Positions 9,495-63,030 of a stretch of 64,000 nucleotides of DNA are shown piece after piece. The translations under genes and the position numbers were made by a program. The DNA comes from Eublepharis macularius. Lineage: Eukaryota; Chordata; Lepidosauria; Squamata; Eublepharidae. The stretch is from contig NC_072793.1 in assembly GCF_028583425.1 (NCBI RefSeq), positions 96,085,689 through 96,149,688 on the forward strand, read 5' to 3'. The notes under the pieces were generated by a model. It did no database searches, had not been told where the DNA came from, and saw nothing but the letters and a program-made list of their open reading frames with translations. Numbering within the stretch: the stretch's first letter is position 1; each line of letters starts with the position of its first letter.

Positions 9495-41631
<32,137 letters not shown>

Positions 41632-54341: not shown

Positions 54342-54447
54342 ATGGGTACAGGTGCTAGTGCTCAGGCAAAACACTCCCGTGAACTACAGAAGATGCTAAA
54401 AGAAGACGCAGAGAAGGATGCTAGGACTGTTAAGCTACTGCTTCTTG
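54342..54447 (+). CDS. GNAT1: GNAT1 exon 1, N-terminus
   Basis: 106 coding nt from ATG, donor g/gtaagt. It encodes [20 protein letters not shown] then [16 protein letters not shown], with the last Gly split. Gly2 and Ser6 fit the N-myristoylation consensus. The upstream in-frame sequence is not conserved, so this ATG is the start. Confidence 0.96.
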
Positions 54448-57400
54448 GTAAGTCCACCCCCCGCCCCTCAGCATCAAACTCAGGCTGTCACTGTGCTTCC
54501 ATTACTTATCTGCACCCCATGCCCCCCACAGCACACCCTTCTTAGCTCAATGCTGTGAATGTGGAAAGAGTGGCTAAAGGTGAGGATGTTAAATCATTGT
54601 TGAAAAAGAGCATGTCCTCTGTATAAGAGGGACCAAGAAAGACCAAGTGGAACCTGGCAGTACTATTGTCCAGTTTCGTAGCTGTTGTTGTTGGATTGGC
54701 TTGTTGGAAAGCAACTTCTGCTCTAGAAATTTGAGGAAGATAGAGGGATAGGGAAGAAATACTTGCACATATTAGAGGCAATAAAAGTGACAGTCTGGCT
54801 GCTTTAGGGAAGATATTGATGTCTCAGGGACTAGAGCTCAAGGCATCTCATATCCAGTATTGCTATTTGGGTTCTTACATGGCTTTTCTCAAACAGAAGA
54901 TCTGCTGCTGGGGTCATTGCCTCTTTCTCCCTTCACTAGTTTAAGCGGATCTGTTTTTGCTGCAAACTCTGAGTCATATTTCCAGCTGTTCTAACTGTAG
55001 ATTACTTATTCTGCTACCTCTTATAATTAGATTTAGGGAGCTGAGGGGAGCATGGCCTACCTGATGTGAATTCAATATGAGTTATATAACCACCTTGCAG
55101 TAAGCGTGCCTCCTTTCTTTAGTGCTTAGCTAGGCTCTAAACTCAGGGTCTCTTGCCTCCTTAGTACGGTTCAGCTATGACAATTAACTAAGGCTAGGGG
55201 TTGTATCTGCTAAGGAGCTGCCTGCTTAGGGTTACAATTGAGCTGCTGTGTTGAACCCAATTTCTGAAAGATCCTTACAATGCCTTCTACTGTATGCAAG
55301 AGAGATGTAAAAATAGGGGAGTGGCAAGTTCATTGAAATAAATAATAATAATAACATTCGATTTATATACTGCCCTTCAGGACAATTTAATGCTCACTCA
55401 GAGCGGTTTACAAAGTGTTATTATTACCCCACAACAATCACCCTGTGAGGTGGGTGGGGCTGAGAGAGCTCTAGAGAACTGTGACTCGCCCAAGGTCACC
55501 CAGCTGGCTTCGTAGAGGAGTGGGGAATCAAACCCGGCTCTCCAGATTAGAGTCCCGTGCTCTTAACCACTACACCAAACAAGATGCTTAGAAGGGTAGA
55601 CTATGGCACCATTGGTCTTGCAAGTGTATAACCATTGGCTAACAGCTTCAGGAACACAGGAGCAGTGAACATCTGGGCAATAGCTGAAAATGACATTGTG
55701 AGAATAAGATGTTGCCAGTCCAATCATCCATACCTTTTCTATAACCACTAGTGTTGTCACTCCACCTCCCTGCACCGGACTGAACATGATGTAGTGGTTA
55801 GAGTGTTGGACAAGGAGTCTAGGACCTGGGAGACCCAGGTTCAACCCTCCACTCTGCCATGGAAGCTTGCTAGGTGACCTTGGGCCTGTCACATATTCCC
55901 AGCCAAAGCCACCTCATAGCTTGTGAGGTTAAAATGGAGGAGAGGAGAATGATGTCAGCAGATTTGGGTCCCTGCTGGAGAGAAAGGCAGGGTATAAAGA
56001 ATGAAATAAGCAAACAAACAAGAACTTTCTCGCTAGCAGCACCATGAAGCCCACAAGGGCATTACTGCAGTAGCTCTAGCTGCCTCATTCCAGAGATTGG
56101 TTCAATAATTCAGTGCCTCTTCTTATAAAGCTAGGCATAACAAGCCAAAACCTCAGGGTGCCCCTGCACAACAGAGGAAAGTCTTCAGTCTCTCATCCTC
56201 ACCTGTGATGTTTTCATAACTACATATGTCTATATTGTGCCTTCTCTGTGAAGTATGCCTTTAAACTATGTATGATCCAAATCTCAGCCACAGAACTGAG
56301 TAATCTTAATCCATTTTAGACCAAAGCCTTTGGATCTGGGTAATCTTCCACAACTCACTTGCTGCAACACCAGCCAGAACCAGTCTACAATTGAAATGGG
56401 CTTCTGGACACATGAAAATGGATGGAAACCAAAACCCTTTATTCTTTAATATAGCTGTTATAGGTAATCTGAAATGGGAAATTATCATCAGGTTATAGTT
56501 TAATAGCAGCTGGTAGGAGGCAAGCTTACCCCTTTCCCACCCATGTTATTTTCCTGATAAAAATTGTTCTTCCTAGTTTCTCATTAGGGATTACATACAG
56601 GCAACTTTTTAAAAGTTAATTAAACTAAGGATCAAACTAAACGTGATGGAAGGGTGTTTATATGCAACCACCTGTCGGTATGTTAAGAAAGTGGCACATC
56701 TATGAAGGGGATCTAATTCTGCTCCTTTGTGGGCCTCCTTACACTATGATCCATTGCTTTCAGCTTTTTTGTCCTTGCCAGACTCACTTCCAATACTGGA
56801 GCCAGGCTGGAAGAAAACAAGGACTTGAAATGCTATCAGTAATACATGAATGATGGAGTTTGGTGTTTTAATGTTTTCAGTGTGGACTAATTTATACTGT
56901 ATAGTTTTGATATGATTTAAAATGTTTTGTCATCTGTTTTGAGTCCTGATTTAGAGAAAAAGGAATATAAACACTAAATAAAAGCTTCAAACACTGGATC
57001 AAAATAACTTAAGGTGCTGAGTGGGAGGGTTTAGCTCTTAAATTAAACATAAGCTTTGCCTTCTTTGTTTACACATAATCAGGTGGACTTAAAAAAATAG
57101 ATTTCCCTTATTTATTGTTATATATGTAAGCCTTTAAGAAGTACCAGGTTTAGGAATACTGCCATCTAGGTGGGAGGATAAAGAGAGATTTCAACAGAAT
57201 TTTGTTGAGGTGTTGCTTAGCAACAGCAGAGTAAGCAGCTTGACTGGTTTCCCTTGAGAGAGGATAGAGGAGGAGGACCGGAAGGGAGACTGCAAGGAAC
57301 ATCTGTTGAGAAGACAGCTGCGGGGACATATGAGGAGATACTGCATTTCAATTAGAACAGAAGTGTGGTTTTCTTGAAGGCGAGGAAACTTATATCAATG

Positions 57401-60400
57401 TCACTGGTATTCTGGTGTGAGCCCTTCCCTGACCCAGCCCATACCTTTGCTAGGAGGAAAGGCTGGGTTCCAGAATTCCTAAAGAATAGAGACCCATATG
57501 TGTATCCCACATCAACAGTGACTGCTGACACGCATCTGGACTCTTTTTGGAATTGTAAGTAAGGCCCTGAAGACTGAAGAGAACTACTTCTCATTCACAA
57601 CTATATTTTGGGTCTATTAGGTTGAACCTTGCTTCTGTGTATCACTTTTATTTTTAGCAACATAGCTCACTTAAAGCTCCCTATTATTATATCATTTCCT
57701 GTCTTTAAATAAATAGTAAAATTAGAGGTATTTTTTAGAAAATCATTTCTGATTTGAATGAGAGACAACTCTTTTGTGACCACCACTAGTGAGGCCCTTG
57801 CTGCTGAGCTGACAGAGTTTGTTATTATTTGCCCCACACACGCACCCACCTGCTTTCTTGGGTTGCCAATGGCCTCCCTGTGTCCATTATGCAAGCAAGA
57901 ATTTTAACAGCATATAAAACAGAGGTGCTGTATCTTCTTTGTGGCTTAAGAGGATTCTTTTGGTAAGCAGTGCAGTGGCTGAGAATTTCATCCCAACTGA
58001 ACAGACAGAAAAATTAGAAGCAGCAAAGATGTTTTCCAATGAAACAAAATCAAACTGAGTAATTTTAAAAAGTAGTTGTAAAAACATAACAGCAATTGTG
58101 CTGGGTCAGACAAATGGCCACTCTAGCCCAGCATCCCGTTTCCCATAGTAACCCACCAAATGACCCAGGGAAGCCTACAAGAAGGGCTTGAAAGTTGAAG
58201 CCTCTCTGTGTTGCTTGCCCTGGGAAAGGATATTTTGAAATGCTCTGCCTCGAACTTGGAAGCTGCAATAAAAAATGTAGTGCAACTGATTCAAAATTTT
58301 AAATAGAAAATGAGCTAAAACCATGAAGAAAGTGTGTATATCTCTAATCTAGATGGAAGTTCGCAATTTCCTACAATAAGTACCATGGATAGGAGAGGAA
58401 ACCCAGTTCTTGGTGTGTTTTAAACAAAAACAGTTAAAGGAAGAACATGAAGGGATTTGGGACATGTTTTTAATGTTTAGATTACAATAAATTTAAAAAG
58501 TTTATTTTCCTTGTGTTTCTTTATATCAAATTATGTAACCTGAAAAAAGTTTGAGCTCAAAGAACATCTTCCTTATCAAGACAATTTTCAAATGCTCAGT
58601 GAAGCAGTAAACATTTCATAACAATTCATTACAAGATCTAAAGCTTAGACGAGGCTGATCAATGCAGAAAAGGTACAATTTCATACATAAGATCTAAATG
58701 TTATAATGAAGTAGATAAGATCTAAATGTTATAATGAAGTAGATCTAGATAGTGATTGTCCGCAAAATACTAATGGGAGTAGTATTACACTGTTAGCTCA
58801 TGAATAAATACTAATATGGCACTCAAAAGACTAACAAAAATTATTCCTTGTAAGCTTTTGCAATCTAGAAGCCAGTTCATCAGAAATCTTGAGAAATGCT
58901 TAGAAGCAGTCATTTTAGGTTAGAGGATGAGGGGAAAATAGTAGAGTCAAGAGGCCATAAAATGCAAGATATGGGATAAATATGAGCAAAGGCTATATAA
59001 TTCAGATCTAATCAAGTAAAAAACCAGATCATTCACTAATTATGCTCTTAGCAAGACATTGGATCATATAAGCTGCTATTGGGCCTCAGACTTTTTCCAA
59101 ACTGATCTCTTTAACAGGAAATGCTTGTGACTGAAGCTGGAACCTTCAACGTGCAGTACATGAGCCCTTCTGACAGTAGCACAAACTTCTAGAATGACTG
59201 CATCTCTTTTGGAGGCAAAGGGAAGGAAATTAGAAGAGTCAGGCATTATTAGGGCCTCATATGTTTATAAGGTTTAATGTAGATTTGATAAATTACTAAA
59301 TAGTTGGTTTCCAAATGTGTGGGATTGTGTCATTGATAGATTTAGCTTTCTGGGACAGATACAGAATCATCTATTTCCTTTTCTTTTTTTTCTACCAGGG
59401 GCTGGAGAATCGGGCAAAAGCACCATTGTCAAGCAAATGAAGTAAGTTTTTGCACAGACAACAATTCCTAGGCATTCTCTACAGTAGCTTTTAAACTGTG
59501 ACAATGCCAGTTGGAGTTTCTTCACAGAGCAAGCGTACCTGAAGCATTTTAAGTATGCACTTAAAAACCTGCCAAGCAAAATCGGAAAACAAAACATATG
59601 ACTGCCTGGCTCCCCCCACTCCCAATTATATTTCCTTTTGTCATTCTCTTTTGGTGGCCCTGAGTCCTAACAGCATTCATATGCAGATGCAGCCCTCTGG
59701 AAAGCTTCCTGGAATTCTGGATTCATTTCGTCCTCTTAACTTCCACAGAATTATCCATCAGGATGGCTACTCCATAGAGGAGTGTTTGGAGTTCATCTCC
59801 ATCATCTACAGCAATACTTTGCAGTCCATACTGACCATTGTGAGGGCCATGGACACACTCCATATTCAGTATGGAGACCCGGCTAGAAAGGTAAGTAAAA
59901 AAGGAGGAGATACTGCAATTATTACTTTAGCACTTTAAACAGGTGCTAAACAGCTGTGCAATATAAAAAACATAGAATTAAAGAACTAAAATAAAAACAA
60001 CACTATCCTGCCCTTATGGTTATATTCAAAATAAATAGAAACCTAGAAATATATAATATAAATAGAAGGCAGAACTAGATTGTACAAATAGTCACAAATA
60101 TCTATAGGTAAGAATTCCAAATGTAATCTTTAGTTTAAGAATAATAGCGGAAGCAGAAAAACACAGGACTCTAGGAGTATGAAGAGAAATCTTTCCTCAT
60201 ACAACTCAACTCCTGTTTCAATTGTAGGATGATTCCCGCAAACTGCTGCACTTAGCAGACACCAGTGAAGAGGACACCATGTCTACGGAGATGTCTGACA
60301 TCATCTGCCGCCTCTGGAAGGACACAGGCATCCAGGCCTGTTTTGACAGAGCCTCAGAATACCAGCTGAATGACTCAGCTAGCTAGTAGGAACCTTTTGC

Positions 60401-61067
60401 TTGTACCCCTTGAGAGACTCCAGAGAATTTCAGGGTGTGCAACATGAACCCTAGGGTTGTGTACATATTGGAGAAGCTGTTGGTGCATAATGTCTTAGAA
60501 ATTTGTATCCCTCTACCTGTGGTTTTGCTAGACAGGGAACATCTCTATCCTACAAGCAGATACAGCAGTGTATGAAGTCAATGGAGACTGGCCTTGAATA
60601 TTGTTTTGAAGATTGTACCCAGTGTGGTTGTAAGGTAATGGGTGATTCTAGGAAGGACTGGACTGACATCAGGTACCTACAACTGAATTGGATCTTTGAC
60701 CACAGTTGCATAGGAGGGCTTACTGTAATTCTCTGGCCTAATTTCTGAGAGTGTTGTTGTCTGGGCATGTGTAGCATTTCTCTCCCTCTGTTCTTGAAAA
60801 GCATCAGACATACACTATTCTTGCTCATACAGTCTGCCACATACCTTATCCAGCTCACTGGGGAACCGGACATTTGACTGCCCTCTCTGAAGGCTAGAAG
60901 TAGCTCCCATTGTAGACTTTCCATCTTTCTATCTTCAGTTACCTGAACGATCTGCCACGGTTGGTGACACCAGGATACATCCCTACAGAGCAGGATGTTC
61001 TGCGCTCCAGGATGAAGACTACGAGCATCATTGAAACTCAGTTTTCCTTCAAGGATCTTAATTTCAG
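54342..61067 (+). CDS. GNAT1: Rod transducin alpha subunit (exons 1-5; exons 6-8 outside window)
   Basis: GNAT1 is the alpha subunit of the heterotrimeric G protein that links rhodopsin to cGMP phosphodiesterase in rod outer segments. Exons are 54342-54447, 59399-59441, 59749-59890, 60228-60385 and 60939-61067 (106, 43, 142, 158, 129 nt), exactly the classic Galpha-i/t exon lengths. They encode residues 1-193. Visible are the N-myristoylation signal MGTGAS, the P-loop GAGESGKST, the helical domain and switch I with the catalytic Arg174 and Mg-binding Thr177. The short N-terminus (no ELAKRS-type insert) favours GNAT1 over cone GNAT2. Residue 179 is Ser instead of the near-invariant Gly. No stop or frameshift is present. 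The exon with the DVGGQ switch II was not found before 64000. Confidence 0.95.
55337..55580 (-). mobile_element. tRNA-derived SINE, family S1, copy 2
   Basis: On the minus strand, gtttggtgtagtggttaaga (A box), ggtttgattcc (B box) and an (ATT)n tail. It closely resembles 19586-19838. Confidence 0.9.
55788..56020 (+). mobile_element. tRNA-derived SINE, family S3
   Basis: gatgtagtggttagagtgtt (A box), ggttcaaccc (B box), a ggtgaccttgggcctgtcac block, and a tail of gcagggtataaagaatgaaa. It is distinct from S1 but shares the tRNA-derived head. Confidence 0.88.
56920..56996 (+). mobile_element. LINE 3' tail (L2-like)
   Basis: aatgttttgtcatctgtttt, a degenerate gagtcctgattt block, then aaaggaatataaacactaaa. 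Weak similarity to the tails at 14048 and 33925. Confidence 0.4.
58080..58265. mobile_element. Common reptilian dispersed repeat (family R1)
   Basis: It starts aaaaacataacagcaattgt, then gctgggtcagacaaatggcc and ctagcccagcatcccgtttc. The layout is a frequent amniote LINE-derived repeat. Related to 29364-29507. Confidence 0.55.
58687..58742. repeat. 28-bp tandem duplication
   Basis: A 28-bp unit beginning ataagatctaaatgttataa is repeated twice without mismatch. Confidence 0.9.
59399..59441 (+). CDS. GNAT1: GNAT1 exon 2, P-loop
   Basis: 43 nt, acceptor tctaccag, donor aa/gtaagt. It encodes [15 protein letters not shown] across its junctions. The Walker A/P-loop that binds GTP phosphates is intact. 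The exon length is the family standard. Confidence 0.97.
59749..59890 (+). CDS. GNAT1: GNAT1 exon 3, helical domain
   Basis: 142 nt, acceptor ttccacag, donor aag/gtaagt. It encodes [40 protein letters not shown] and YGDPARK. Phase 0 out. Confidence 0.97.
60228..60385 (+). CDS. GNAT1: GNAT1 exon 4, helical domain
   Basis: 158 nt, acceptor attgtag, donor ta/gtagga. It encodes [39 protein letters not shown] and [13 protein letters not shown]. Without splicing the frame stops at once (tag tag), so the boundary rests on the family length and on exact joining to Tyr150. The donor is weak, with A at -1. Confidence 0.93.
60939..61067 (+). CDS. GNAT1: GNAT1 exon 5, switch I with Gly179 to Ser
   Basis: 129 nt, acceptor atcttcag, donor ag/gtatca. 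It encodes [20 protein letters not shown], then [17 protein letters not shown] and KDLNFR. Arg174 and Thr177 are kept. Codon 179 (61024-61026) is AGC, Ser, where almost all Galpha proteins have Gly. Confidence 0.96.
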
Positions 61068-62789: not shown

Positions 62790-63030
62790 TTATAACAACA
62801 ACATTCAATTTATATACCGCCCATCAGGACAACTTAATGCCATATTCACAGCAGCTTACTAAGTGTGTTGTTATCCTCATAACAGTCGCCCTGTGAGGTG
62901 GATGGGGCTGAGAGAGCTCTGAGAAAGCTGTGACTGACCCAAGGTCACCCAGCTGGCTTCAAGTGGAAGAGTGGGGAATCAAACCCGGCTCTCCAGATCA
63001 GAGTCCTGCTGCTTTTAACCACTACACCAA
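62790..63030 (-). mobile_element. tRNA-derived SINE, family S1, copy 3
   Basis: On the minus strand, tggtgtagtggttaaaagca (A box), ggtttgattcc (B box), and an A/T-rich tail. Third copy of S1. Confidence 0.88.

What the first reader, a model, noticed from the sequence alone, without database searches (positions are those of the whole stretch)
61024..61026. Rod transducin with the RGS-insensitive Gly-to-Ser change in switch I
Codon 179 of GNAT1 reads AGC (Ser) in the context [10 protein letters not shown]. Counting from the start ATG across the five exons gives Arg174, Thr177 and Ser179, so numbering matches bovine transducin. This glycine is near-invariant in Galpha proteins. The equivalent changes in Galpha-i1 (G183S), Galpha-o and Galpha-i2 (G184S) and yeast Gpa1 (G302S) are classic mutations that block RGS binding while leaving intrinsic GTPase activity. 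Rod recovery depends on RGS9 acting on this surface. If real, this animal's rod transducin should escape RGS9 and shut off slowly, or the gene is relaxed (for example, in a lineage with modified or lost rods).
Basis: partly seen in the sequence, partly recalled or inferred. Interest (0 to 1): 0.92.

Follow-up and report, generated by a model that had tools for sequence, protein, structure and literature searches.

The report
Gecko rod transducin losing its off-switch site
A gecko's rod-vision G protein naturally carries the same one-letter change that laboratories use to stop a G protein being switched off, most likely because geckos lost true rods and the protein's docking surface is no longer strictly maintained.

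Summary
Window 54342-61067 (+) holds GNAT1 exons 1-5, in frame with canonical splice sites; codon 179 (61024-61026) is AGC, Ser. Of 225 fetched G-alpha rows with a residue there, 223 have Gly and none Ser. The window also has Val175Met.

The animal is a gecko: its GNAT1 groups with Euleptes, Paroedura and Gekko kuhli (100/99). Those three keep Gly179 but carry Thr178Met, seen in no other fetched row. These residues equal G-alpha-i1 Val179, Thr182 and Gly183, which papers name as RGS-contact or RGS-insensitivity sites. So the RGS-docking loop changed in at least two ways within geckos.

At sites invariant in 15 other GNAT1s, gecko rows change at 9-17 (Gekko kuhli's doubtful exon 1 left out); five held-out lineages change at 1-6, gecko GNAT2 at 2-3, GNAT3 at 1. 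Papers report that geckos lost rhodopsin. Best reading: a still-open GNAT1 under relaxed constraint, its RGS9 interface eroding, its product probably RGS-resistant. Slow rod shut-off is then largely moot. Adaptive RGS release and recent gene death are not excluded; exons 6-8 lie outside the window.

The parts
54342..54447 (+). GNAT1 exon 1 (residues 1-35 and first base of codon 36); [35 protein letters not shown], with Q8, Q16 and M18 not seen in the other geckos (P0045's exon 1 left out) or the 15 outgroup GNAT1s
59399..59441 (+). GNAT1 exon 2, P-loop GAGESGKST intact
59749..59890 (+). GNAT1 exon 3 (helical domain, recalled)
   Evidence: first used a start one base too far right and was discarded
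60228..60385 (+). GNAT1 exon 4 (helical domain, recalled; gecko-shared Ser149)
60939..61067 (+). GNAT1 exon 5, containing switch [11 protein letters not shown]
61009..61011 (+). Arg174 (AGG), catalytic arginine, intact
61012..61014 (+). Met175 (ATG) where 222 of 225 aligned proteins have Val, 2 Ile and 1 Ala; G-alpha-i1 Val179 equivalent
   Evidence: RGS interface per PMC7572916 legend
61021..61023 (+). Thr178 (ACG, holding a CpG); Met in the three other gecko GNAT1s; G-alpha-i1 Thr182 equivalent
61024..61026 (+). Ser179 (AGC), the finding; G-alpha-i1 Gly183 equivalent
27136..27414 (+). open frame containing a class 3 semaphorin exon upstream of GNAT1 (SEMA3F expected by synteny, recalled)
37324..37659 (+). 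open frame containing a cysteine-rich semaphorin (PSI-like) exon, read by eye
40231..40713 (+). open frame with a weak Ig-domain match, probably the semaphorin Ig exon
   Evidence: E 0.024, below Pfam cut-off

Best explanation
This is the rod transducin alpha gene (GNAT1) of a gecko. Geckos lost rhodopsin and run rod-shaped cells on cone machinery, so GNAT1 lost its demanding rod job. Its frame is still open (exons 1-5), but selection on partner surfaces has weakened, and the switch I loop that RGS9 grips has been altered in at least two ways: Val175Met plus Gly179Ser here, Thr178Met in the other geckos. The Ser179 protein most likely still binds and slowly hydrolyses GTP but is poorly accelerated by RGS proteins. 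Shown: the residues, gecko placement, GNAT1-specific acceleration and open frame. Inferred: rod loss as the cause, and RGS resistance.
For: Ser179 and Met175 in the window. Gecko clade 100/99, built without columns 175-181. Thr178Met in 3 of 3 other gecko GNAT1 rows and in no other of 225 aligned rows. At sites invariant in 15 chosen non-gecko GNAT1s: window 11 of 128, Euleptes 10 of 261, Paroedura 17 of 261, Gekko kuhli 9 once the 20 changes of its doubtful residues 1-35 are set aside; held-out lacertids 3 and 2, birds 1 and 2, mammal 1, frog 2, shark 6 of 262-267. Gecko GNAT2 2-3 of 188-193 and GNAT3 1 of 199. Relative-rate test, window against Lacerta: 20 to 5 with tiger as outgroup (P 0.003), 19 to 8 with duck (0.034), 18 to 7 with frog (0.028); Paroedura P 0.0016 or less over the whole protein. 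Of 8 window-only new residues, 6 fall on invariant sites, about what 128 of 192 would give with no constraint, though the counting rule favours invariant sites. Equivalent Gly-to-Ser changes in Gi, Go, Gz and Gq members are used as RGS-insensitive mutants and prolong deactivation (PMC7572916 passages).
Against: The gene is not free: the window side shows 18-20 changes against lacertids, while a neutral simulation gives 20 changes at 0.05 substitutions per site and 67 at 0.2; given the great age of the gecko split (recalled), constraint was strong for most of that time. The speed-up is not significant in every test: Euleptes with duck as outgroup gives P 0.06-0.10. Clustering in switch I over the window's span is weak (3 of 7 against 18 of 121, P 0.086; 3 of 7 against 7 of 139 for residues 174-350, P 0.007, chosen after seeing the data). 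Paroedura's own new residues are not concentrated on invariant sites (6 of 12). No dN/dS was possible: no nucleotide orthologues at hand. Gecko GNAT1 expression is unknown here.
Confidence: 0.6

Rival explanations
1. Adaptive RGS release: geckos keep GNAT1 in use (dim-light retina, pineal or taste cells) and selection favoured weaker RGS control, giving a slow, sensitive transducin. Different gecko lineages hit the same loop in different ways.
For: At least two different changes at adjacent RGS-docking residues; frame, P-loop, Arg174 and Thr177 intact in the window, and the C-terminal tail intact in the three other gecko rows; switch I denser in changes than the rest of residues 174-350 (P 0.007, post hoc).
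Against: Changes are spread over the protein, not only the RGS surface. Cited literature says the tokay gecko uses cone-specific machinery (PMC7702016 passage; Zhang 2006 itself not read). If ancestral codons were GGC, GTG and ACG (not seen), the three loop changes are plain transitions, one at a CpG, which fits mutation bias.
Confidence: 0.22
2. Recent gene death in the window's species: GNAT1 is already non-functional and the open exons 1-5 are simply too young to show a stop; damage may lie in exons 6-8 or in regulation.
For: Window-only new residues fall on conserved sites about as expected without constraint (6 of 8, with a counting rule that leans that way). With 0.02-0.03 neutral substitutions per site, 55-67% of simulated copies still have no stop. 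The Gekko kuhli model has a different exon 1 and misses residues after 97.
Against: Five exons, their splice sites and the nucleotide-binding motifs within the window are intact; Euleptes and Paroedura have full 350-residue models.
Confidence: 0.13
3. Base-calling or assembly error, or a rare allele in the sequenced individual.
For: A single base (G to A) would make the difference; no reads were available.
Against: The surrounding exon is clean, a second change (Met175) sits in the same loop, and the gecko relatives show a change next door.
Confidence: 0.05

Closest known systems
Laboratory RGS-insensitive G-alpha mutants (Gi1 G183S, Go and Gi2 G184S, Gq G188S and others)
   Same: Same Gly-to-Ser change at the same switch I position (PMC7572916, PMC10996109; passages)
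   Different: Natural, in transducin, accompanied by Val175Met and other changes; RGS response not measured
Grass G-alpha (rice RGA1 Asn195) with loss of the RGS partner
   Same: A natural single change in switch I, at the Thr182 equivalent, proposed to have uncoupled G-alpha from RGS (PMC3386157, section 8 read); the same position as Thr178Met in the three other geckos
   Different: Plant G-alpha; the RGS partner gene was lost there (the paper allows that the loss came first); in geckos the upstream receptor (rhodopsin) was lost and the fate of RGS9 was not tested here
G-alpha-12/13, natural RGS-insensitive family
   Same: Val179 and Thr182 equivalents replaced (by Lys), incompatible with RGS binding (PMC7572916 legend)
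   Different: Family-wide feature; dedicated RH-RhoGEF partners (PMC3386157 section 8)
GNAT1 of other vertebrates
   Same: Ungapped residue numbering over 1-192 and nucleotide-binding motifs
   Different: Switch I KTTGI (176-180) invariant in the 15 non-gecko GNAT1s compared; Thr178Met or Gly179Ser only in the gecko rows

Membership tests
GNAT1 (rod transducin alpha) | Closest sequence match to G-t-alpha-1 rather than G-t-alpha-2, gustducin or Gi | tested here: met
   353 bits to Gt-alpha entries against 265 gustducin and 255 Gi1; GNAT1 rows apart from GNAT2 and GNAT3 rows at 100/99, gecko GNAT1 clade 100/99
GNAT1 (rod transducin alpha) | Conserved neighbourhood (semaphorin 3 gene upstream, recalled; GNAI2 neighbour, PMC5896119 passage) | tested here: inconclusive
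   Class 3 semaphorin exon on the same strand upstream; the downstream side lies outside the window
GNAT1 (rod transducin alpha) | Complete 350-residue frame with Gln200, NKKD, TCAT and CGLF tail | not testable with these tools
   Exons 6-8 are not in the window; the genome search did not complete
RGS-insensitive G-alpha (Gly-to-Ser type) | Ser at the switch I glycine | tested here: met
   Codon AGC at 61024-61026
RGS-insensitive G-alpha (Gly-to-Ser type) | No RGS binding or acceleration | not testable with these tools
   Needs a GTPase assay
RGS-insensitive G-alpha (Gly-to-Ser type) | Intrinsic GTPase kept | not testable with these tools
   Arg174, Thr177 and P-loop present; Gln200 outside the window
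Pseudogene | Stop, frameshift or broken splice site | tested here: not met
   None in exons 1-5; exons 6-8 not seen
Gene under relaxed selection | Faster protein change than in related lineages and than in paralogues of the same group | tested here: met
   Relative-rate tests (significant for the window with all three outgroups, not for Euleptes with duck) and invariant-site counts
Gene under relaxed selection | dN/dS closer to 1 on the gecko branches | not tested
   No nucleotide orthologues were available

The most novel reading that the evidence does not exclude
Geckos repeatedly and independently disabled RGS control of rod transducin (Val175Met plus Gly179Ser in one lineage, Thr178Met in others) while keeping the rest of the protein working, producing a natural slow-off transducin that serves a dim-light or non-retinal pathway in an animal without rhodopsin.
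Probability: 0.2. Interest if true: 0.85.

Novelty: new variant of a known kind. Interest (0 to 1): 0.6.

Why it matters
The switch I Thr-Gly pair is almost unchanging in the G-alphas compared here, and Gly-to-Ser there is a standard laboratory tool. Finding it in nature, with a different hit at the neighbouring residue in related geckos, gives a test of how a signalling protein is dismantled after its receptor is lost: is the off-switch interface the first to go, and is it neutral or favoured? It also bears on whether gecko GNAT1 still has a job and where. The grass G-alpha case (PMC3386157) is a clear plant parallel.

Tried and rejected
Ser149 as a second oddity: rejected, because all gecko rows have it and the GNAT2 rows aligned have Ser there too. 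Paralogue mix-up (GNAT2, GNAT3, Gi): rejected by scores and tree. Rod promoter elements in the 600 bases upstream of exon 1: no CRX TAATCC, one TAATCY, two NRL-like TGCTGA half sites, a number reached by 9% of window stretches; no lizard comparison, so uninformative. Placing the window inside Gekkota: unresolved, so whether Thr178Met came before the split or arose elsewhere stays open. Structure prediction was not run: a 192-residue fragment cannot report on RGS binding. One search used an exon 3 start one base off and gave false stops; one search replaced it. Literature: all ten paper searches listed no title or abstract on gecko GNAT1 switch I, but several listings were capped (25 of 88, 15 of 326, 20 of 517, 15 of 46 shown), the library is open-access only, and the most relevant works (Schott 2019, Zhang 2006, Pinto 2019) were seen only in reference lists, not read. 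One search used a taxid cut short in a listing and returned a plant; ignored.

Full report
What is there. Five exons on the plus strand between 54342 and 61067 encode residues 1-192 of a transducin alpha subunit, with canonical splice sites and no stop. The best solved-structure matches are G-t-alpha entries (353 bits), well above gustducin (265) and Gi1 (255), and Pfam gives G-alpha. tblastn of two gecko GNAT1 proteins finds exons 1-5 only, so exons 6-8 are not in the window. A class 3 semaphorin exon lies upstream on the same strand, as expected for GNAT1 (order recalled). Codon 179 is AGC, serine; codon 175 is ATG, methionine, instead of valine.

How rare it is. Three searches listed 235 different proteins (120 best hits each, of 7980, 7980 and 2345 scored candidates; many rows are 90%-identity clusters). 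Of these, 225 have a residue aligned to Gly179: 223 Gly, one Lys in a frame-shifted fragment (P0165) and one Cys in an unnamed ENA protein (P0215); none is Ser. At 178, 219 of 225 have Thr; three have Met, and these are exactly the three gecko GNAT1 rows (Euleptes europaea P0001, Paroedura picta P0007, Gekko kuhli P0045); the other three are single rows with Ala, Asn or Ser (P0108, P0165, P0213), all odd in this stretch. At 175, 222 of 225 have Val, two Ile, one Ala, none Met.

Which animal. With the switch I columns 175-181 left out of the tree, the window groups with the three gecko GNAT1s at 100/99; its highest identity is to Euleptes (92% of the kept columns). Seven residues are shared by all gecko rows with data and absent from 15 non-gecko GNAT1s, four of them at otherwise invariant sites. 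Order inside the gecko clade is not resolved, so I cannot say whether the window's lineage split before Thr178Met arose. The window's own Thr178 codon is ACG, one CpG transition from ATG (Met); codons of the other geckos were not seen.

What the loop does. In published work, Thr182 of G-alpha-i1 (178 here) is held by RGS4 Asn88 and Asp163 (PMC8252600 passage). Val179 and Thr182 (175 and 178 here) are the switch I positions whose replacement in G-alpha-12/13 is given as a reason for no RGS binding (PMC7572916 figure legend). Gly-to-Ser at 183/184/188 (179 here) makes RGS-insensitive Gi, Go, Gz and Gq members with prolonged recovery (PMC7572916 passages); in Gi1 the change alone did not alter adenylyl cyclase inhibition, and expression was lower (PMC10996109 passages). 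Transducin shut-off depends on RGS9-1 with G-beta-5L (PMC7591391 passage). By equivalence, the Ser179 protein should be RGS-resistant. This was not tested, and I saw no measurement on transducin itself.

Why it probably happened. Papers report that nocturnal geckos have lost the rhodopsin and blue cone pigment genes and carry cone pigments in rod-shaped cells (PMC11007431 passages; PMC10061024 passages), and that the tokay gecko uses cone-specific phototransduction machinery (PMC7702016 passage, citing Zhang 2006, not read). Against 15 GNAT1s that I chose (two lacertids, two birds, tiger, frog, shark and eight bony fishes; other GNAT1 rows, many of them fragments or isoforms, left out), the window has new residues at 11 of 128 invariant sites, Euleptes at 10 of 261 and Paroedura at 17 of 261; Gekko kuhli has 29 of 250, of which 20 lie in residues 1-35 of a doubtful exon 1. 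Lineages held out in the same way give 3 and 2 (lacertids), 1 and 2 (birds), 1 (mammal), 2 (frog) and 6 (shark); single rows held out one at a time, fishes included, give 0-6. Gecko GNAT2 gives 2-3 of 188-193 and gecko GNAT3 1 of 199, so the speed-up belongs to GNAT1. Some controls were higher: the snake GNAT2 row gave 17 of 210 (14 of them in residues 1-38) and the tuatara GNAT2 row 11 of 204 (all in residues 41-54), which I take for exon-model errors; three snake GNAT3 rows gave 5-7 of 209. Relative-rate tests of the window against Lacerta and Zootoca with three outgroups all point the same way, P 0.003 to 0.034; Paroedura P 0.0016 or less over the whole protein; Euleptes P 0.009 to 0.10, not significant with duck as outgroup.

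How far it has gone. The gene is not simply dead since the origin of geckos: a neutral simulation on the window's coding sequence (half of the changes transitions) gives 67 amino-acid changes at 0.2 substitutions per site and leaves 4% of copies without a stop, while the window side shows 18-20 changes against lacertids. However, 6 of 8 window-only new residues fall on invariant sites, close to what no constraint would give (the counting rule leans that way; Euleptes 4 of 5, Paroedura 6 of 12, Gekko kuhli 1 of 3), and a death too recent to show a stop is not excluded. Whether switch I is hit more than the rest is borderline: P 0.086 over residues 1-192, 0.029 over the whole protein and 0.007 over residues 174-350, all chosen after the fact.

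Reading. Gecko GNAT1 lost its rhodopsin-driven rod job, purifying selection relaxed, and the RGS9-docking loop was altered in at least two ways in different geckos. A natural plant parallel exists: most monocot G-alphas changed the same threonine to asparagine, proposed as the step that freed grasses to lose RGS (PMC3386157 section 8). The adaptive alternative, an RGS-free slow transducin kept for a dim-light or non-retinal role, remains open; it needs expression data, more gecko genes and a GTPase assay. I saw no paper on this in the listings of my ten searches (several capped), but the specialist gecko paper (Schott 2019) was seen only as a reference, so I do not claim it is unpublished.

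Noticed in passing
P0001, P0007, P0045, residue 178: All three other gecko GNAT1s carry Thr178Met, at the residue corresponding to G-alpha-i1 Thr182 in the RGS interface; Paroedura also has His209Tyr (switch II by recall).
   Followed up: partly
P0045 (Gekko kuhli): The GNAT1 model has a different exon 1 and lacks eight residues after position 97; either a poor model or a decaying gene.
   Followed up: no
protein searches: Eublepharis, Gekko japonicus, Heteronotia and Sphaerodactylus show GNAT2 and/or GNAT3 clusters but no GNAT1 cluster named for them among the listed hits; they may sit in the three-member Euleptes cluster or lack the gene.
   Followed up: no
P0215, switch I: An unnamed ENA G-alpha (23 member sequences) reads KTTCIIET, Cys at the same glycine.
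   Followed up: no
window 55345-55555 and 62792-63006: Two copies of a dispersed repeat of about 210 bases, 80-93% alike by segment, in introns on both sides of GNAT1 exons 2-5 (SINE-like by eye).
   Followed up: no
window 27136-41631, + strand: Exons of a class 3 semaphorin gene upstream of GNAT1 (one confirmed by search, others read by eye).
   Followed up: partly
window 58687-58744: Perfect 28-base tandem repeat, 2.1 copies, in GNAT1 intron 1.
   Followed up: no
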